Assembly (NCBI RefSeq): GCF_002093745.1
Contig: NZ_MTSB01000002.1
Span: forward strand, 248,001 to 312,000
Source of the DNA: Pseudomonas graminis
GTDB taxonomy: Bacteria; Pseudomonadota; Gammaproteobacteria; Pseudomonadales; Pseudomonadaceae
DNA length: 64,000 nucleotides
Reading direction: 5' to 3'
A program made the position numbers and the translations under genes. This document shows positions 52,560 to 63,956 of this stretch, one piece after another. The first letter of the stretch is position 1. The number at the start of each line of letters is the position of its first letter. The notes beneath the pieces are model-generated. The model had not been told where the DNA came from. It saw only the letters and a list, made by a program, of their open reading frames with translations, and ran no database searches.

Positions 52560-52832
52560 GGGGATGTATCGGGTGAAGCTGCGCATCACACACCTGCAAC
52601 GCGTCGGATGCGTATCCAGACCGCTCCACAATTCTTTACCCCCCATTCAATCCCTCTGCCACACTGTCTGCCTTATTACTGTGCAACCCTTGCACCGTCT
52701 GCTCAGGCGGACACGATTTTGGTGCTGCGCCTTGCGGGGCGGGCAGTGCTGGTGTCGTTGGCGCCTGACTTTGACTGGATGGCATAAGTCTTGCGCGGCT
52801 CATTTACCGTTCAGGCTCGCAGGAGGCACGCC

Positions 52833-55800
52833 GTGTCGATTCATATTGCCTTGCACCATGTCACGCATTATCGCTACGAACGCGCGGTCGAACTGGGCCC
52901 TCAGATCGTTCGCCTGCGCCCGGCCGCCCACAGCCGCACCCGCGTGCTGTCGTACTCGCTGAAAGTCCTGCCTGAAAACCACTTCATCAACTGGCAACAG
53001 GACCCCCAGGGGAATTATCTGGCGCGCCTGGTCTTCCCGGAAAAGACCAACGAGTTTCGCGTGGAAGTCGACCTGGTCGCCGAGATGGCGGTGTTCAACC
53101 CGTTCGACTTCTTTCTGGAGCCGTACGCCGAGAACATTCCTTTCACGTATGCCAGCGAAGAACAGCGTGAGCTGGCGCCGTACCTCGAAAAGCTGCCGCT
53201 GACGCCGAGATTCCAGGCCTATCTGGACAGCATCAGTCGCGAGCCGATTCCCGCCATTGATTTTCTGGTCGGTCTCAACCAGCGCCTGAGCCAGGACGTC
53301 GCGTACCTGATCCGCATGGAGCCGGGTGTTCAGACCCCGGAATTTACCCTCGAAAATGCGTCGGGCTCATGCCGTGACTCTGCATGGCTGTTGGTGCAAC
53401 TGCTGCGTCATCTGGGCATGGCTGCGCGGTTTGTGTCGGGCTATCTGATCCAGCTCAAAGCCGATGTCGAGGCGCTGGACGGGCCTTCTGGCACCGAGGT
53501 CGATTTCACTGACCTGCATGCGTGGTGCGAGGTGTATCTGCCGGGCGCAGGCTGGGTCGGGCTGGATGCCACCTCCGGCCTGTTTGCAGGCGAAGGGCAC
53601 ATTCCGCTGGCGTGCAGCCCCGAGCCATCCTCCGCCGCACCGATCAGCGGGCTGGTCGAACCGTGCGAAACCGACTTCAGCCACGAAATGTCGGTCGAGC
53701 GCATCTGGGAGGCGCCGCGCGTCACCAAGCCTTACACCGAAGCGCAATGGCAAGACATCCAGACACTGGGCCGGCAGATCGACGCCGATCTGGTGCGTGA
53801 CGATGTGCGCCTGACCATGGGCGGCGAGCCGACGTTCGTGTCGATTGATGATCGCGACGGCGCTGAATGGAATACCGCAGCGCTGGGGCCTCGCAAGCGC
53901 GAGCTGTCTGCCGAGCTGTTTCAACGCATGCGGGCGCATTACGCACCGCTGGGGATCGTGCATTTCGGTCAGGGCAAGTGGTACCCCGGCGAGCAACTGC
54001 CGCGCTGGTCGCTGAACTGTTTCTGGCGCAAGGATGGCAAGCCGGTGTGGCGCAATAACGCGCTGATCGCCGATGAAACACAGGATTACGGCGCGACGGG
54101 TGAGCTGGCCGGGCGTTTCCTGGCCAGCGTTGCCGAGCGCTTGAAACTGCCGAGCCGTTTCGTTTTTCCGGCTTACGAAGACAATTTCTATTACCTGTGG
54201 CGCGAAGGTGCGCTGCCCGTGAACGTGACCGCTGAAGATTCAAGGCTCGGCGACGAGATGGAGCGGGCACGTCTGCGCAAAGTCTTCGCGCAAGGTCTGG
54301 ACAAAATGATAGGTCAGGTTTTGCCGCTGGCCCGTAGCGCTGACAGCGAAAGCTGGCAGAGCGGTCGCTGGTATCTGCGCGACGAGCACTGCCGTCTGGT
54401 GCCGGGCGATTCTGCGTTGGGCTATCGACTGCCGCTGGCGTCGCAGCCGTGGGTCAAGGCAGCGGAATATCCGTTCATTCATCCGACCGACCACAATCAG
54501 GACTTCCCTGAACTGGCAGACAGCGACTCGCTGACCGCGCAACTCCGGTCCACAGACACCGATGCCGAGCGCGCACCGAAGGTTGACGAGTCCGCCGACT
54601 GGCTGACCCGCACGGCGTTGTGTGCCGAGGCGCGTGACGGGCGTTTGTACCTGTTCATGCCGCCGCTGCAGAAGCTTGAGGAATACCTTGAGCTGGTGGC
54701 TGTGATCGAAGCGACCGCCGAAGAACTGCAGTGCCCGATTTTGCTGGAAGGCTATGAGCCTCCGAGTGATCCGCGTCTGTGCAACTTCCGCATCACACCT
54801 GACCCGGGCGTGATCGAAGTCAACGTGCAGCCGTCCGCCAGTTGGGACGAACTGGTTGAACGCACCGAGTTTCTTTACGAACAGGCCCGCCTCACGCGCC
54901 TGACCACGGAAAAATTCATGATCGATGGCCGGCACACCGGCACCGGCGGCGGCAACCATTTTGTGCTGGGCGGGGCGACGCCTGCGGACTCACCGTTTCT
55001 GCGTCGTCCGGACCTGCTGCGCAGCCTGATCAGCTACTGGCATAACCATCCTTCGCTGTCGTACCTGTTTTCCGGCCTGTTCATTGGGCCGACCTCCCAG
55101 GCGCCGCGTATCGACGAAGCGCGCAACGATTCGCTGTATGAAATGGAAATCGCTTTCGCGCAGATGCCTGAACCCGGCGAAGACGTCGCGCCGTGGGTCG
55201 TGGATCGCCTGCTGCGCAATCTGCTGATCGACGTCACCGGCAACACGCACCGCGCCGAGTTCTGCATCGACAAACTGTACTCGCCGGATGGCGCGACCGG
55301 ACGTCTTGGCCTGCTGGAACTGCGTGCGTTCGAGATGCCACCCCATGCGCGCATGAGCCTCGCCCAGCAATTGCTGCTGCGGGCGCTGGTCGCACGTTTC
55401 TGGCGTGAGCCTTATGCACCGGCCAAGCTGGCGCGTTGGGGCACGCAGTTGCACGACCGCTTCATGCTGCCGCACTTCATCGAGCAGGATTTTGCCGACG
55501 TGGTCGCCGACCTCAACGCCGCCGGTTACCCGGTCAAGGCCGACTGGTTTGCCGCGCACCTGGAGTTCCGCTTCCCGAAAGTGGGCGACTACGCTGTCAA
55601 CGGTATCGAACTGGAACTGCGTCAGGCGCTGGAACCCTGGCATGTGCTGGGCGAAGAGGGCTCGGCCGGTGGTGCGGTGCGCTATGTCGATTCGTCGCTG
55701 GAACGCCTGCAAGTGCATCTCACCGGGCTGCCGCCGCAACGCTACCTGCTGACCTGCAACGGCATACCCGTGCCATTGCAGCCGACCGGCCGGGTCGGTG

Positions 55801-56111
55801 AGTTTGTCGCGGGCGTGCGCTATCGCGCCTGGCAGCCTGCCAACTGCCTGCAACCGACCATCGGTGTGCATGCGCCGCTGGTATTTGACCTGCTCGACAC
55901 CTGGATGCATCGCTCGCTGGGCGGCTGCGAGTATCATGTCGCCCACCCGGGCGGTCGTAACTACGAAACCTTGCCGGTCAACGCCAACGAAGCGGAAAGC
56001 CGTCGCCTGTCACGTTTCTTCCGCATTGGTCATACACCCGGCAAACTGGACGTCCCGTTGCTCAACATTAACGACGAGCTGCCGATGACGCTGGATATGC
56101 GTCTGCATTAA
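52833..56111 (+). CDS. Transglutaminase fused to DUF2126 putative amidoligase
   Basis: A 1092-residue two-part protein. Residues 1-300 are a bacterial transglutaminase-like protease domain with an intact triad: Cys180 in SGSCRDSAW, His229 in DLHAWCEVY and Asp245 in GLDATSG. The remaining roughly 780 residues match DUF2126, which Pfam labels a putative amidoligase; visible landmarks are LTMGGEPTFVSIDDRDG, GQGKWYPGEQLPRW, VIEVNVQPSASWDELV and FMIDGRHTGTGGGNHFVLGG. The start is GTG at 52833 behind a perfect AGGAGG; longer frames lack conservation. No signal peptide. It heads a three-gene operon of predicted peptide ligase and peptidase-like proteins. Substrate unknown. Confidence 0.88.
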   Translation: MSIHIALHHVTHYRYERAVELGPQIVRLRPAAHSRTRVLSYSLKVLPENHFINWQQDPQGNYLARLVFPEKTNEFRVEVDLVAEMAVFNPFDFFLEPYAENIPFTYASEEQRELAPYLEKLPLTPRFQAYLDSISREPIPAIDFLVGLNQRLSQDVAYLIRMEPGVQTPEFTLENASGSCRDSAWLLVQLLRHLGMAARFVSGYLIQLKADVEALDGPSGTEVDFTDLHAWCEVYLPGAGWVGLDATSGLFAGEGHIPLACSPEPSSAAPISGLVEPCETDFSHEMSVERIWEAPRVTKPYTEAQWQDIQTLGRQIDADLVRDDVRLTMGGEPTFVSIDDRDGAEWNTAALGPRKRELSAELFQRMRAHYAPLGIVHFGQGKWYPGEQLPRWSLNCFWRKDGKPVWRNNALIADETQDYGATGELAGRFLASVAERLKLPSRFVFPAYEDNFYYLWREGALPVNVTAEDSRLGDEMERARLRKVFAQGLDKMIGQVLPLARSADSESWQSGRWYLRDEHCRLVPGDSALGYRLPLASQPWVKAAEYPFIHPTDHNQDFPELADSDSLTAQLRSTDTDAERAPKVDESADWLTRTALCAEARDGRLYLFMPPLQKLEEYLELVAVIEATAEELQCPILLEGYEPPSDPRLCNFRITPDPGVIEVNVQPSASWDELVERTEFLYEQARLTRLTTEKFMIDGRHTGTGGGNHFVLGGATPADSPFLRRPDLLRSLISYWHNHPSLSYLFSGLFIGPTSQAPRIDEARNDSLYEMEIAFAQMPEPGEDVAPWVVDRLLRNLLIDVTGNTHRAEFCIDKLYSPDGATGRLGLLELRAFEMPPHARMSLAQQLLLRALVARFWREPYAPAKLARWGTQLHDRFMLPHFIEQDFADVVADLNAAGYPVKADWFAAHLEFRFPKVGDYAVNGIELELRQALEPWHVLGEEGSAGGAVRYVDSSLERLQVHLTGLPPQRYLLTCNGIPVPLQPTGRVGEFVAGVRYRAWQPANCLQPTIGVHAPLVFDLLDTWMHRSLGGCEYHVAHPGGRNYETLPVNANEAESRRLSRFFRIGHTPGKLDVPLLNINDELPMTLDMRLH

Positions 56112-56200
56112 AAAAACAGTGGTTTTGTGCGTCAGATGCACACGGACGTGACATCTGGCTGCACTACTCTGAAGTCCTTACGTTGCCTGCCGAGCCTTCC

Positions 56201-58696
56201 ATGCCTGACCTGCTTGACCGCTACCCTCTTTCCGAGGGTACTTACCACGAGATGCTCGACGCTGACGGTGCCGTTCGCCCGCATTGGCGACGCCTGTACG
56301 AGCACATGCAACGCAGCACTTCAGCGCAATTGATCCAGCGCCAGGCCTTGTTGACCCGGCAAATTCAGGAAAACGGCGTCACCTACAACGTTTACGCCGA
56401 CCCCAAAGGCGCAGACCGGCCGTGGGAGCTGGACCTGTTGCCGCACATTATTGCGGCGGATGAGTGGCAGCACGTCGCGGCAGGGATTGCCCAGCGTGCG
56501 CGGCTGCTCAACGCCGTGCTGGCTGACCTGTACGGCCCGCAAACCCTGATCGCCAATGGCTTGCTGCCCGCTGAACTGGTGTTCGGTCACAACAATTTTC
56601 TGTGGCCGTGCCAGGGCGTCAAACCGCCGGAAGGCACCTTTCTGCACATGTACGCCGTGGACCTGGCGCGCACGCCGGACGGGCGCTGGTGGGTCACCGC
56701 CGACCGGACTCAGGCCCCGTCGGGTGCCGGCTATGCGCTGGAAAATCGCCAGAGCGTTGCGCGCGCCTTGCCGGAAACCTACCGCGACTTGCAGGTCAGG
56801 CATCTGTCAGGCTTTTTCGACACCCTGCAACAGACCCTGGCCCGTCAGGCGCCGACCAGCAGCGAAGCGCCGCTGGTGGTGTTGCTGACACCGGGACGCT
56901 TCAACGAAAGTTATTTCGAGCATCTGTATCTGGCGCGGCAGTTGGGTTATCCGCTGGTCGAGGGCGGCGACCTCACCGTGCGTGATGCGACTGTCTACCT
57001 GAAAACCCTCAGCGGCCTGCGCCGGGTTCACGCGATCATGCGCCGCCTGGACGATGACTTCTGCGACCCTCTGGAATTGCGTACCGATTCCGCACTTGGC
57101 GTGCCGGGCTTGCTGGAGGCGGTGCGTAGAGGCAATGTGCTGGTCGCCAATGCGTTGGGCAGCGGCGTTCTGGAGTCCCCGGGCCTGTTGGGCTTTTTGC
57201 CGAAAATCAGTCAGTACCTGTTTGGCGAGGACCTGATCCTGCCCTCGGTTGCGACCTGGTGGTGCGGAGAGCCGACAGTGCTGGCGCAAGCGCTGGAGAA
57301 ACTGCCTGATCTGCTGATCAAACCGGCCTTCCCCTCGCAGCACTTCGCCCCCGTGTTTGGTCGCGACCTCAACGAAGAGCAACGTAATGCGCTCGCCCTG
57401 CGCATGCAGTCGCGGCCTTACGCTTATGTTGCCCAAGAGCTGGCACAGTTGTCTCATGCGCCGGTCCTGCAAGCAGACGGCACCGGCCTGCAACCCCGCG
57501 CCATTGGCATGCGGGTGTACGCCGTGGCCAGCCTCGACGGCTATCGCGTGTTGCCGGGCGGTCTGACCCGCGTCGCCGCTGAAGCCGATGCCGATGTAGT
57601 GTCGATGCAGCGCGGCGGTGCGAGCAAGGACACTTGGGTGCTGGGCGAGCGTTCGCACCTTGGCGAACCCTGGAAAGGCCAGCGCACCCTGGGCGTCTAT
57701 GATCTGATCCGCCGCGATCCTTACCTCCCGTCGCGAGTGGTAGAGAACCTGTTCTGGTTCGGGCGTTATTGCGAGCGTTGCGACGACAGTGCGCGTCTGT
57801 TGCGCATCATGCTGACGCGCTATGTCGATGATGACGATCCTCTCGCGTTGCAGGCCGCCGTGGCTCTGGCGGAAAGCCTGGGCATGCTGCCGGAAGCGGA
57901 GGAGGACGAAGAACTGAAGGACCGTCTGCTCGTTGCCTTGCTGGGTGACGAGTGGCCTTTCAGCCTGCGCGCCAATTTGCAGCGCCTGCAATGGGCTGCG
58001 TCGCAAGTGCGTGGCAAGCTTTCACGGGAAAACTGGCAGACGCTGGTCGAGTTGCAGCGTGAAGCCCTGAGCCTGGAAACCGACGAGCCGGATTTCGGCG
58101 AATTGCTGGACTTCCTCAACCGTCTGGTGATGTCGCTGGCGGCCCTTTCCGGTTTCGCGCTGGACGACATGACCCGCGACGAAGGCTGGAGCTTCCTGAT
58201 GATCGGTCGGCGTATCGAGCGATTGAAATTCCTCAGTACCAGCCTCGCGGCGTTTCTGCGCGGTTCGGTGGCTTCGGAACAGGCCGGGCTGGAATGGCTG
58301 CTGGAGCTGGGTAACAGCAGCATCACCTACCGTTCGCGTTACATGGCCGTTCCGCACCTTATTCCGGTGCTGGACCTGCTGTTGCTCGATGAGCAAAACC
58401 CGCATGCCGTGCTGTTTCAGCTCAAGCTGGTCCAGCGCTCGCTGCGCCGCCTGAACGATGAGTTCGACGCGCCGCGCGATAACAGCCTGGCGGTACTGGC
58501 CCAGCGTCTCGCCGCCTTCGATCTGGGCAGCCTGGAAAATCCGCTGTTTGGTCAGAGCAGCATCGACGCTGTCCTCGACGGGCTGGCGGATCTGCTGCAC
58601 AGCATCGGCGACAGCAGTGGGCAGGCTTCAGACCGTCTGGCCCTGCGCCATTTTGCCCACGTCGATGACGTCAGCCAACGCACGGTATCTGTCTGA
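56201..58696 (+). CDS. Circularly permuted ATP-grasp protein fused to alpha-E domain
   Basis: An 831-residue protein joining two families often encoded separately. Residues about 60-460 are a circularly permuted ATP-grasp type 2 ligase (NGVTYNVYADPKGADRPWELDLLPHI-type start, LLTPGRFNESYFEHLYLARQLGYPLVEGGDL, LLIKPAFPSQHFAPVFG). Residues about 510-815 are the helical alpha-E domain with its ER-type motifs (NLFWFGRYCERCDDSARLLRI, MIGRRIERLKFL). Family knowledge suggests peptide-bond or amide ligation with ATP. The ATG at 56201 is preferred to a TTG at 56183. It lies 89 bp after the DUF2126 gene and its stop overlaps the next ATG (TGATG). Confidence 0.88.
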   Translation: MPDLLDRYPLSEGTYHEMLDADGAVRPHWRRLYEHMQRSTSAQLIQRQALLTRQIQENGVTYNVYADPKGADRPWELDLLPHIIAADEWQHVAAGIAQRARLLNAVLADLYGPQTLIANGLLPAELVFGHNNFLWPCQGVKPPEGTFLHMYAVDLARTPDGRWWVTADRTQAPSGAGYALENRQSVARALPETYRDLQVRHLSGFFDTLQQTLARQAPTSSEAPLVVLLTPGRFNESYFEHLYLARQLGYPLVEGGDLTVRDATVYLKTLSGLRRVHAIMRRLDDDFCDPLELRTDSALGVPGLLEAVRRGNVLVANALGSGVLESPGLLGFLPKISQYLFGEDLILPSVATWWCGEPTVLAQALEKLPDLLIKPAFPSQHFAPVFGRDLNEEQRNALALRMQSRPYAYVAQELAQLSHAPVLQADGTGLQPRAIGMRVYAVASLDGYRVLPGGLTRVAAEADADVVSMQRGGASKDTWVLGERSHLGEPWKGQRTLGVYDLIRRDPYLPSRVVENLFWFGRYCERCDDSARLLRIMLTRYVDDDDPLALQAAVALAESLGMLPEAEEDEELKDRLLVALLGDEWPFSLRANLQRLQWAASQVRGKLSRENWQTLVELQREALSLETDEPDFGELLDFLNRLVMSLAALSGFALDDMTRDEGWSFLMIGRRIERLKFLSTSLAAFLRGSVASEQAGLEWLLELGNSSITYRSRYMAVPHLIPVLDLLLLDEQNPHAVLFQLKLVQRSLRRLNDEFDAPRDNSLAVLAQRLAAFDLGSLENPLFGQSSIDAVLDGLADLLHSIGDSSGQASDRLALRHFAHVDDVSQRTVSV

Positions 58697-59589
58697 TGAG
58701 CGCCTTCTACCAGATTTTTCACGACACGCATTACAAGTACGACAGTCCGGTTTCCCTGGCTCAGCAACTGGCGCATCTGTGGCCGCGCAGCAGTCCGTGG
58801 CAGCGTTGCACCGAGCAGGCACTTGAGATTTTTCCGACGCCCACAACGCGTCGCGATGAACTGGATGTGTTCGGCAATCCGCTGACCCGCCTGGCATTCG
58901 AGCGCCCGCATGATGAACTGCAGGTCAATGCCCGGCTGCGTATCGAGGTGCTGGAACGGCCATTTCTGGATTTCAACCTGTCGCCGGAATGGGAAGTGAC
59001 CCGCAGTGCGCTGACTTACAGCGCCAAGCCGATGACCGAGGATATTCTTGAAGCCTGCCGCTACCGCTTTGAATCACCTTACGTCCACCTGAAGCGTTCG
59101 TTCGTCGAGTTTTCTCAGGATTGTTTTCCTGCGGGGCGGCCTTTGCTGCTGGGCGCGCAGGCCCTGATGGAGAAGATCTTTACCGAATTCACCTTCGATG
59201 AAGAGGCGACTCAGGTCGCTACGCCGCTGGTGGAGGTGCTGGAGCGGCGACGCGGCGTGTGCCAGGACTTTGCGCACTTGATGCTGGCGTGCCTGCGCTC
59301 ACGCGGGCTGGCGGCGCGTTACGTCAGCGGTTACCTGCTGACCCAGCCACCGCCTGGCCAGCCCCGGTTGATTGGCGCGGACGCTTCGCATGCCTGGGTG
59401 TCGGTGTTCTGCCCGGCGTCGGGCTGGGTCGATTTTGACCCGACCAACAACGCCCAGCCTGCGCTGGAGCACATCAGTCTGGCCTGGGGGCGGGACTTCT
59501 CGGACGTTTCACCGTTGCGAGGCGTTATTCTGGGTGGCGGCAACCACGATCCCGAGGTTCGGGTCACGGTCATGCCTGTCAGCGCCTAA
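58696..59589 (+). CDS. Transglutaminase-like cysteine peptidase family protein
   Basis: A 297-residue protein with the N-terminal beta domain (FYQIFHDTHYKYDSPVSLAQQ, residues 1-90) and a transglutaminase core (about 145-270). The triad is complete: Cys189 in RRGVCQDFAHLML, His232 in DASHAWVSVF and Asp248 in DFDPTNN. No signal peptide or membrane helix. Such proteins act as peptidases or amide exchangers, not necessarily as cross-linkers. Its ATG overlaps the stop of the ATP-grasp/alpha-E gene, so equimolar production with it is likely. Confidence 0.9.
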   Translation: MSAFYQIFHDTHYKYDSPVSLAQQLAHLWPRSSPWQRCTEQALEIFPTPTTRRDELDVFGNPLTRLAFERPHDELQVNARLRIEVLERPFLDFNLSPEWEVTRSALTYSAKPMTEDILEACRYRFESPYVHLKRSFVEFSQDCFPAGRPLLLGAQALMEKIFTEFTFDEEATQVATPLVEVLERRRGVCQDFAHLMLACLRSRGLAARYVSGYLLTQPPPGQPRLIGADASHAWVSVFCPASGWVDFDPTNNAQPALEHISLAWGRDFSDVSPLRGVILGGGNHDPEVRVTVMPVSA

Positions 59590-59734: not shown

Positions 59735-60181
59735 ATGATTCGCAAGCTCGTAGCGATTTCGCTGTTGTCGTTGGCCAGTGGTCAGTTGTTGGCTGCCGAG
59801 TGCTCGGCCACAGTCGATTCGACCGATCAGATGATGTACGACACCAAAGCCATCCAGATCGACAAGAGCTGCAAGACGTTTACTGTCAACCTGACGCACT
59901 CCGGCAACCTGCCGAAGAATGTCATGGGGCATAACTGGGTATTGGGCAAGAAAGCCGATGCTCAGGCGATCACCAACGATGGCATGGCGGCAGGCATCGA
60001 CAAGGATTACCTGAAGCCGGACGACGACCGCATCATCGCCCACACCAAAGTCATTGGCGCCGGTGAAAAAGACTCGGTGACGTTCGATGTGTCGAAACTG
60101 GACCCGGCGCAGGAATATGAGTTTTTCTGCACCTTCCCGGGGCACATCAGCATGATGAAAGGCGCCGTGACCCTCAAGTAA
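59735..60181 (+). CDS. azu: Azurin, periplasmic blue copper protein
   Basis: Small electron carrier. 148 residues with a Sec signal peptide ending LLAA, giving a mature protein beginning [13 protein letters not shown]. The copper ligands are seen in the family positions: His in MGHNWVL, and Cys, His and Met in [12 protein letters not shown]. The disulfide cysteines (ECSA, KSCK) are also present. CTGGAG precedes the ATG. No clear ANR box (TTGATNNNNATCAA) was found upstream, although azurin is ANR-regulated in P. aeruginosa. Confidence 0.96.
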
Positions 60182-60220: not shown

Positions 60221-60326
60221 GCATGCCCATGCGGAGCGGGGGCACGAGAGGTGTTTTTCCCGGACACCGCTCGTTCCTCACGCTCCAGCGTGGGAATGCC
60301 TTGCGTGACGCTCCGCGTCACAGATC
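60221..60326. repeat. 106-bp intergenic repeat, copy 1
   Basis: Starts GCATGCCCATGCGGAGC and ends GCGTCACAGATC. It contains at least two small palindromes: TTCC-CACGCT/AGCGTG-GGAA and GTGACGC-TCC-GCGTCAC. It is a direct repeat of 60344-60449 with one visible mismatch. It is non-coding. Confidence 0.85.
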
Positions 60327-60343
60327 TGCGCCGCGCCCATCCG

Positions 60344-60449
60344 GCATGCCCATGCGGAGCGGGGGCACGAGAGGTGTTTTTCCTGGACACCGCTCGTTCC
60401 TCACGCTCCAGCGTGGGAATGCCTTGCGTGACGCTCCGCGTCACAGATC
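60344..60449. repeat. 106-bp intergenic repeat, copy 2
   Basis: Same 106 bases as copy 1 apart from one C-to-T difference (TTTTCCTGGACAC against TTTTCCCGGACAC). Period 123 bp, with an unrelated 17-bp spacer. The second copy ends 18 bp from the nadE stop. A diverged relative is at 9656. Confidence 0.85.
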
Positions 60450-60466
60450 CTTGCCGTGCCAATCCC

Positions 60467-61294
60467 TCACGGGGCGTAGGGCAATTCGCGTTTGTGCTGG
60501 GTCTTGTCGTAGGTTTCGCAAATGATCCTGAACGCTTCCTCACGCACCGGCTCGCCGTGCAGGAAGGCGTCGATCTCGGCGTAGGTGATGCCGTGTGAGG
60601 CTTCGTCCGGTTTGCCGGGTGACAGGTCTTCCAGGTCGGCCGTCGGTACTTTTTCCACCAGTGACTCCGGCGCGCCGAAATGGCGGGCGATGGCGCGCAC
60701 CTGATTTTTCACCAGACCGCTCAACGGTGCGAGGTCGCAGGCACCGTCGCCGAACTTGGTGAAGAAACCCATGACGGCTTCGGCCGCGTGATCAGTGCCG
60801 ATCACCAGGCCCTGATAAGCCCCGGCGACGGTGTATTGGGCAACCATGCGCATGCGGGCCTTGGTGTTGCCGAGTACGAAGTCCACGGAACTGGCCGGCA
60901 GCCCGTCGAAGGCTTTCACTTCAGCAGCCAGCGCCTTGACGCTGGAGCCGATATTGATGGTGTGACGCTCGTCCGGCTCGATGAAGTCCACGGATGCCTG
61001 AGCTTCGTGTTCGTCGGCCTGCACGACGTAGGGCAGGCGCACGGCGACGAAGCGATAACCGGCGTCACCCGTGCTGGCGCGCAGCTCTTTGACGGCGCGT
61101 TGTGCGAGCAGGCCGGCCGTCAGGGAATCGACCCCGCCGCTGATGCCCAGCACCAGCGTTTTGAGGCGTGCGTTCTGCAGGCACTCCTTGATGAAGTTGA
61201 CGCGGCGGGCGACTTCGGCCTGCAATGCGTTCTGGTCCGCAAAAGGTGGCTGGACCTTGAGCTGTTCAGCAATCTGGCGCTGTACGGCGTGCAT
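60467..61294 (-). CDS. nadE: NH3-dependent NAD+ synthetase
   Basis: Last step of NAD synthesis, amidating deamido-NAD with ammonia. 275 residues with the PP-loop [19 protein letters not shown] near residue 53, and conserved [26 protein letters not shown] and [20 protein letters not shown]. No N-terminal glutaminase domain is present, so it is the short ammonia-dependent type. pncB lies 26 bp upstream in the same direction, so the two salvage genes are likely co-transcribed. Confidence 0.95.
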
Positions 61295-63940: not shown

Positions 63941-63956
63941 TGGCACGCGCCTTGCT
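63941..63956 (+). promoter_or_regulatory. Sigma-54 (RpoN) promoter
   Basis: TGGCACGCGCCTTGCT matches the -24/-12 consensus TGGCAC-N5-TTGCW exactly. It reads rightward toward a gene beyond the window. Sigma-54 promoters need an upstream-bound activator, and the GGTTGC array ends 54 bp before it. Confidence 0.88.

What the first reader, a model, noticed from the sequence alone, without database searches (positions are those of the whole stretch)
52833..59589. Complete, tightly coupled transglutaminase / DUF2126 / ATP-grasp-alpha-E / transglutaminase operon
Seen: three forward genes, the last two overlapping as TGATG, encode two transglutaminase-like enzymes with intact Cys-His-Asp triads (C180/H229/D245 and C189/H232/D248), a DUF2126 putative amidoligase domain and a circularly permuted ATP-grasp fused to an alpha-E domain. 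Known: comparative genomics predicts such sets form amide- or peptide-ligating systems, but I know of no defined substrate or product. Inference: two ligase-type and two peptidase-type activities in one cytosolic operon suggest a cycle that builds and trims or transfers a small peptide tag or metabolite. The two fusions make this an unusually compact version.
Basis: partly seen in the sequence, partly recalled or inferred. Interest (0 to 1): 0.72.

Follow-up and report, generated by a model that had tools for sequence, protein, structure and literature searches.

The report
Nitrogen-starvation operon with a dead ligase
A common but uncharacterised Pseudomonas operon appears to be switched on by nitrogen starvation, and one of its two supposed bond-forming enzymes seems to have lost the residues it would need to work, which narrows down what the system could do and how to test it.

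Summary
The three genes, domains and Cys-His-Asp triads are as reported, but the layout is common: 17 of 20 loci that I chose outside the genus have it, and the TG-ligase fusion was described in 2008. Three things are added. (1) Control: a perfect sigma54 element lies 53 bp before gene 1 and stands before the gene in all 80 named (the closest 80 of 583) and 29 unnamed Pseudomonas loci read; an NtrC-like dyad lies upstream in 73 of 81. The genome's Anbu-type trio has the same layout, and a published Burkholderia ntrC mutant loses expression of the like cluster. (2) Chemistry: the ATP-grasp half of gene 2 lacks the metal-site signature of its intact paralog (Glu 0 of 25, Asn 0 of 25) yet is under purifying selection: probably a pseudo-ligase. 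DUF2126, with GS-like motifs intact, is the plausible ligase. (3) Dependence: all 120 DUF2126-bearing genomes (of 398) carry Alpha-E. Best reading: a nitrogen-limitation module in which one GS-like ligase and two TG-type cysteine enzymes make and break an amide bond on a pseudo-ligase/Alpha-E scaffold. Substrate unknown; the key 2009 paper was not held, so priority is unchecked.

The parts
52711..52725 (+). NtrC-like dyad ACACGATTTTGGTGC (8 of 9 positions of GCAC-N6-GGTGC), 69 bp upstream of the sigma54 element
   Evidence: 8-9 of 9 positions in 73 of 81 Pseudomonas promoters against 2.2% of mononucleotide shuffles; NtrC consensus recalled
52780..52794 (+). sigma54 (RpoN) -24/-12 promoter TGGCATAAGTCTTGC
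   Evidence: perfect TGGC-N7-TTGC; at -52 to -54 in 78 of 78 scored named Pseudomonas loci, 76 with the identical 15-mer; 15-mer also before the gene in the 2 unscored ones; perfect in 29 of 29 unnamed Pseudomonas loci
52821..52826 (+). ribosome-binding site AGGAGG
   Evidence: conserved in the 26-locus upstream alignment
52833..56111 (+). gene 1: transglutaminase-like domain fused to DUF2126 GS/GCS-like carboxylate-amine ligase, 1092 aa, GTG start
53259..53570 (+). Transglut_core of gene 1, triad C180/H229/D245
   Evidence: triad invariant 27 of 27
53658..56102 (+). DUF2126 domain with invariant E332, E662, N664, H709, E829, R831
   Evidence: 1352.8 bits; 27 of 27; 23 of 50 structural rows are glutamine-synthetase type
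56183..58696 (+). gene 2: circularly permuted ATP-grasp (degenerate) fused to Alpha-E
56699..56707 (+). A167-D168-R169 (numbered from the ATG at 56201), replacing the E-D-N signature of the intact paralog
   Evidence: Glu 0 of 25, Asn 0 of 25 in gene 2 orthologs
57320..57361 (+). remnant of the ATP loop (KPAFPSQHFAPVFG in place of K-P/E-x-x-E/G-S/A-GGYG...G)
   Evidence: Lys 11 of 25, first Gly of GGYG 5 of 25
57725..58654 (+). Alpha-E helical domain
   Evidence: no clear solved relative
58696..59589 (+). gene 3: transglutaminase-like enzyme, 297 aa, triad C189/H232/D248, one-base overlap with gene 2

Best explanation
This is a nitrogen-limitation operon. When nitrogen is short, phosphorylated NtrC bound near 52711-52725 activates sigma54-RNA polymerase at 52780-52794 and the three genes are transcribed together (conserved cis-elements shown; NtrC binding inferred). 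Gene 1 is the working ligase: DUF2126, assigned in print to the carboxylate-amine ligase superfamily of glutamine synthetase and GCS2, activates a carboxylate with ATP and joins it to an amine, most likely of a small amino-acid-like or peptide substrate (domain and conserved motifs shown; activity inferred). The TG domain fused to it and the separate gene 3 TG are papain-like cysteine enzymes that hydrolyse or transfer the amide (triads shown; reaction inferred). Gene 2 is not a second canonical ligase: its ATP-grasp half is a pseudoenzyme that, with Alpha-E, acts as a scaffold or substrate-binding subunit (loss of signature residues and purifying selection shown; scaffold role inferred). The set is an add-on to the CP-ATP-grasp/Alpha-E/TG trio, whose intact ATP-grasp is encoded elsewhere in this genome under the same promoter layout, so the two probably act in one pathway (inferred).
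For: Promoter. Same layout on the genome's trio and on 13 of 16 other Pseudomonas trios that I chose. B. cenocepacia ntrC mutant: I35_5080-5083 down 6.0- to 9.4-fold, named among common sigma54 and NtrC targets (passages); B. multivorans gene order matches that cluster. Caballeronia has a perfect dyad plus sigma54 element before the cluster. P. putida trio with Anbu is nitrogen-limitation induced (passages). Pseudo-ligase; 3n6x keeps the signature; YgiC-like proteins show E-I-N and K-P...R-E-G at matching motifs by eye. Purifying selection. DUF2126: and the 2008 profile work (passage). Dependence.
Confidence: 0.6

Rival explanations
1. Gamma-glutamylation-type amine scavenging, by analogy with GmaS or PuuA: DUF2126 attaches glutamate (or another acid) to an amine and the TG enzymes release it, freeing nitrogen.
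For: GS-type ligase (one search lists GmaS, 7cqw, among its rows); nitrogen-starvation type promoter; association of the wider domain set with urea-metabolism domains in marine metagenomes (passage of PMC3597751).
Against: No oxidase or dehydrogenase is among the genes found to recur; but neighbours were scored only for my nine query proteins and only the Caballeronia region came annotated, so this was not tested widely. Two TGs plus a pseudo-ligase are more than such a pathway needs (PuuA pathway recalled).
Confidence: 0.2
2. Protein or peptide tagging system related to Anbu, as proposed for the Anbu operon: ligases add a tag, TG or Anbu removes it.
For: Trio genes lie beside DUF2126 in 9 of 20 chosen loci and Anbu itself in 2 of 20; shared promoter layout; tagging hypothesis as reported in PMC6376114 (passage).
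Against: Anbu was not found in this genome or in 33 of 36 genus members by protein search; the 2008 paper found no small Pup-like gene near the fusion family (passage).
Confidence: 0.2
3. Gene 2's ATP-grasp is active with non-canonical chemistry rather than dead.
For: Purifying selection (median dN/dS 0.079), several other invariant charged residues, and Lys of the loop kept in 11 of 25.
Against: Glu and Asn of the signature are gone in 25 of 25 and the GGYG loop is lost.
Confidence: 0.15
4. The promoter answers to a sigma54 activator other than NtrC.
For: The window's dyad is 8 of 9, not perfect; 8 of 81 promoters score only 7; the site's position differs by about one helical turn between species.
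Against: The same dyad is perfect and exactly 67 bp before the sigma54 element in 14 of 14 trio promoters that have the element, and those genes are attributed to NtrB/NtrC in P. putida (passage).
Confidence: 0.12

Closest known systems
Transglutaminase / carboxylate-amine ligase fusion family (M. tuberculosis Rv2566), Iyer, Burroughs and Aravind 2008, PMC2588565 (one passage seen)
   Same: Same fusion of an N-terminal TG-like papain fold to a C-terminal carboxylate-amine ligase domain.
   Different: The passage seen says nothing of nitrogen control or of the partner ATP-grasp.
Anbu operon (CP-ATP-grasp, Alpha-E, TG, Anbu), PMC6376114 and PMC5666114 (passages seen)
   Same: Homologous CP-ATP-grasp, Alpha-E and TG genes; nitrogen-starvation expression reported there.
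   Different: The Y. bercovieri ATP-grasp released phosphate from ATP; here the ATP-grasp is degenerate and fused to Alpha-E, a DUF2126 ligase is added and Anbu is missing.
B. cenocepacia I35_5080-5083, PMC5491218 (passages seen)
   Same: DUF404/407, DUF403, TG and 'large' TG genes, NtrC- and sigma54-dependent; listed there among genes potentially involved in nitrogen metabolism.
   Different: No enzyme function is discussed in the passages seen; by the B. multivorans order, trio and DUF2126 gene share one cluster there.
Eukaryotic-type glutathione synthetase, GspSA and YgiC/YjfC
   Different: Gene 2 lacks the E-x-N and K-P..E-G type signatures.

Membership tests
TG-DUF2126 (Rv2566-type) amidoligase system | TG-like domain fused N-terminally to DUF2126 | tested here: met
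   also 80 of 80 named loci and 19 of 20 chosen unnamed loci
TG-DUF2126 (Rv2566-type) amidoligase system | Glutamine-synthetase/GCS superfamily fold in DUF2126 | tested here: inconclusive
TG-DUF2126 (Rv2566-type) amidoligase system | Intact TG catalytic triads | tested here: met
   27 of 27 and 22 of 22
Active circularly permuted ATP-grasp ligase | Metal and ATP signature of the intact paralog (E-D-N; K-P/E-x-x-E/G-S/A-GGYG) | tested here: not met
   Glu 0 of 25, Asn 0 of 25, Lys 11 of 25, loop lost
Anbu operon | Anbu gene in the operon | tested here: not met
   None in the window operon and no match in the genome by Anbu protein search
NtrC-sigma54 regulon | sigma54 -24/-12 element at a fixed distance before the first gene | tested here: met
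NtrC-sigma54 regulon | NtrC dyad upstream | tested here: met
   8 of 9 in the window; 8-9 of 9 in 73 of 81; consensus recalled
NtrC-sigma54 regulon | Loss of expression in ntrC or rpoN mutants of this organism | not testable with these tools
   Published data seen only for B. cenocepacia homologues

The most novel reading that the evidence does not exclude
A two-tier, nitrogen-starvation amide-ligation machine: the intact trio ATP-grasp and the DUF2126 ligase act in sequence on one substrate that is carried by a dead ATP-grasp/Alpha-E scaffold, with TG enzymes transferring rather than merely cutting the bond, giving a so far unknown nitrogen-storage or protein-tagging modification.
Probability: 0.2. 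Interest if true: 0.85.

Novelty: new variant of a known kind. Interest (0 to 1): 0.57.

Why it matters
These genes are widespread (DUF2126 in 120 of 398 sampled Pseudomonadota genomes); their chemistry was predicted in 2008 and I found no reported substrate. Nitrogen-starvation control says when to look. A probably dead second ligase says which protein to assay first. The tie to the Anbu-type trio says what to delete together. The open question of what this system makes becomes directly testable in ordinary laboratory pseudomonads.

Tried and rejected

Searches behind 'not found'; several listings were capped (searches showed 40 of 17,680, 25 of 33, 30 of 50 and 25 of 376 papers). Supplementary files could not be opened.
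Full report
What is there. Three + strand genes lie at 52833-56111, 56183-58696 and 58696-59589. Pfam puts all named domains above cut-off. Gene 1 is TG + DUF2126, gene 2 CP-ATP-grasp + Alpha-E, gene 3 TG. Genes 2 and 3 overlap by one base. Both Cys-His-Asp triads are invariant: 27 of 27 aligned gene 1 sequences and 22 of 22 gene 3 sequences. The closest named relatives by gene 1 are P. syringae-group and related strains at 95-98% identity; the window's own record may be left out of that list.

It is an ordinary member of a widespread set. DUF2126 occurs in 120 of 398 Pseudomonadota genomes, and in 32 of 57 relatives, of which 27 of 36 in the genus. In 115 of the 120 its reading frame is at least 1000 aa, as expected for the TG fusion (rows counted by hand; the others are G109, G151, G206, G320 and G442). 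Of 20 loci that I chose outside the genus, 17 carry TG-DUF2126 / CP-ATP-grasp-Alpha-E / TG; the exceptions are L205, L211 and L212. Of 80 named Pseudomonas loci, 77 show all three genes, 1 two and 2 one; I did not check which three, but L157, L171 and L178 are short enough to end within the operon. The TG-ligase fusion was in print in 2008 (one passage of PMC2588565).

Promoter. A perfect TGGC-N7-TTGC sigma54 element lies at 52780-52794, 53 bp before the GTG. The pattern alone is not rare: the window holds 11 perfect matches on both strands against 5.2 expected, and 2 of 100 shuffles reach 11. Its place is what is conserved. In the 78 of 80 named Pseudomonas loci that the script could score, a perfect element stands at -52 to -54, 76 with the identical 15-mer; mononucleotide shuffles of the same 150 bp give 0.6%. 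The two unscored loci, L173 and L175, have the 15-mer 53-55 bp before the match start. Among 29 unnamed Pseudomonas loci, the window's own included, 26 have the identical 15-mer and L018, L029 and L033 a perfect variant. The unnamed loci are the best-scoring ones kept, and the two sets overlap (three contig lengths are shared). Flanking bases are diverged while the 15-mer and two bases after it are invariant in the 26-row alignment, which points to selection.

Upstream lies a dyad GCAC-N6-GGTGC, the classical NtrC-site shape (consensus recalled). At least 8 of 9 positions match in 73 of 81 promoters against 2.2% of mononucleotide shuffles; spacers of 4, 5, 7 or 8 reach 8 in 8, 2, 10 and 1 of 81. 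The species are related, so these are not independent trials. The best site sits 58-59 or 68-70 bp before TGGC in 80 of 81, two places about one helical turn apart. The window's copy scores 8 of 9. In order-1 Markov sequence of the same make-up such a composite occurs 0.125 times per 64 kb; the window holds three, the operon's and two at 63941 (+) and 22746 (-).

The same layout recurs on the sister operon. The genome has a second CP-ATP-grasp/Alpha-E/TG trio on contig C2. Of 17 Pseudomonas trios examined (this one and 16 chosen), 14 have a perfect sigma54 element 49-52 bp before the first gene and, in all 14, a perfect 9 of 9 dyad exactly 67 bp further up; L100, L101 and L107 have no such element. 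The P. putida trio with Anbu is induced by nitrogen limitation and attributed to NtrB/NtrC (passages of PMC7801951 and PMC8050072). In B. cenocepacia the cluster I35_5080-5083, annotated DUF404/407, DUF403, TG and large TG, falls 6.0- to 9.4-fold in an ntrC mutant and is named among common sigma54/NtrC targets (passages of PMC5491218). B. multivorans shows the matching order CP-ATP-grasp, Alpha-E, TG, TG-DUF2126, so I take I35_5083 as TG-DUF2126 (inference). Caballeronia has a perfect dyad and sigma54 element before the cluster, B. multivorans neither by the same scan.

Results against. Directly before DUF2126 in the 20 loci outside the genus only L206 has a perfect element and L210 a one-mismatch one; the starts of L196, L209 and L213 were assigned imprecisely. 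Where trio genes lead the cluster, L195 and L196 have a perfect core and L197 and L199 one mismatch; of the trios that are divergent or downstream, L209 has a perfect core and L198, L206 and L210 none. Under the strict composite rule none of the 20 loci has it before these genes; L198 has one elsewhere. L199 has a perfect dyad near its one-mismatch element. So sigma54/NtrC control is firm in Pseudomonas, likely in Burkholderiaceae, and unproven elsewhere.

Gene 2's ATP-grasp looks dead. I aligned 25 gene 2 sequences with 20 intact paralogs from trios. The paralogs' VLEDNLR signature becomes DRTQ-like: the Glu is never Glu (0 of 25), the Asn never Asn (0 of 25; Arg in 21), the Arg becomes Gln in 23. 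The ATP loop K-P/E-x-x-E/G-S/A-GGYG is lost (Lys 11 of 25; first Gly 5 of 25). The HxDLR Asp is gone (0 of 25) and NSSQ becomes SMQR-like. Many other columns are shared (for example D109, R157, E240 and D289, 25 of 25). The solved homologue 3n6x, 34% identical, keeps LEDN and GSGGYG. YgiC-like proteins of the same fold show YEINADTPT and RKPYFSREG at matching places by eye; that such E and N bind metal in glutathione synthetase and GspS is recalled. The gene is not decaying: median dN/dS against eight Pseudomonas loci is 0.079 for this half, 0.119 for Alpha-E and 0.079 for DUF2126, while the intact trio ATP-grasp is at 0.020. Y. bercovieri's trio ATP-grasp released phosphate from ATP (passage of PMC6376114). 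Ten of the loci gave both forms, so the contrast holds side by side.

Dependence. All 120 DUF2126-bearing genomes also have Alpha-E, and 111 have two or more copies; the 9 with one are G092, G105, G119, G139, G151, G206, G265, G320 and G398. A further 92 genomes have Alpha-E without DUF2126, 12 of them with two copies (compared). Among the 57 relatives all 36 genomes with the fused gene 2 frame also have a separate Alpha-E (counted by hand). Four Pseudomonas without DUF2126 keep gene 2 and gene 3 at that locus. Trio genes sit beside DUF2126 in 9 of 20 chosen loci and Anbu in 2 of 20. The nested pattern suggests that the DUF2126 set was added to the trio.

Other print. A growth-impairing insert in a P. 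aeruginosa antisense screen mapped to PA4926 (table passage of PMC3922391), and PA4925 is listed as changed in a transcriptome table (passage of PMC10413270); that these tags are this operon's orthologs is recalled, not tested. Three further papers that hold PA4925 were seen only in the listing.

Mechanism. I take the operon as a nitrogen-limitation amide-bond module: DUF2126 ligates, two TG enzymes cut or transfer, gene 2 scaffolds, and the trio's live ATP-grasp supplies or shares the substrate. Rough step probabilities, my judgement: sigma54/NtrC control in Pseudomonas 0.93, gene 2 not a canonical ligase 0.85, DUF2126 an ATP-dependent ligase 0.75, shared pathway with the trio 0.55. The substrate is unknown.

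Novelty. The gene set is known. I found no paper on the degenerate ATP-grasp or on NtrC control of the Pseudomonas operon in the searches listed under Tried and rejected, but listings were capped, supplements closed, and the key 2009 paper is not held and could say it.

Noticed in passing
G000 contig C2, L003:4239-7447: The trio operon (intact CP-ATP-grasp, Alpha-E, TG) is kept without Anbu. By protein search Anbu is in only 3 of 36 genus genomes, while 33 of 36 have a separate Alpha-E.
   Followed up: partly
L095-L098: Four Pseudomonas genomes keep the pseudo-ligase/Alpha-E gene and gene 3 but lack DUF2126, leaving no canonical ligase at that locus; three of the four have a perfect sigma54 core upstream.
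   Followed up: partly
52297 and 52471 onward, about 90 bp each: Two near-identical copies beginning TGTGGGAGCGACCGGGGTGGCGATCCACATTGCTCGGG lie upstream of the operon, probably a Pseudomonas intergenic repeat (recalled).
   Followed up: no
60223-60525: A repeated segment gives the same peptide twice in one frame, probably another intergenic repeat; the gene before it, 59735-60181, looks azurin-like by eye.
   Followed up: no
63941 (+) and 22746 (-): Two other composite sigma54/NtrC-like matches in the window; possible promoters or chance.
   Followed up: no
L196, L205: Clusters in which DUF2126, trio genes and Anbu lie together, linking the two systems physically.
   Followed up: partly
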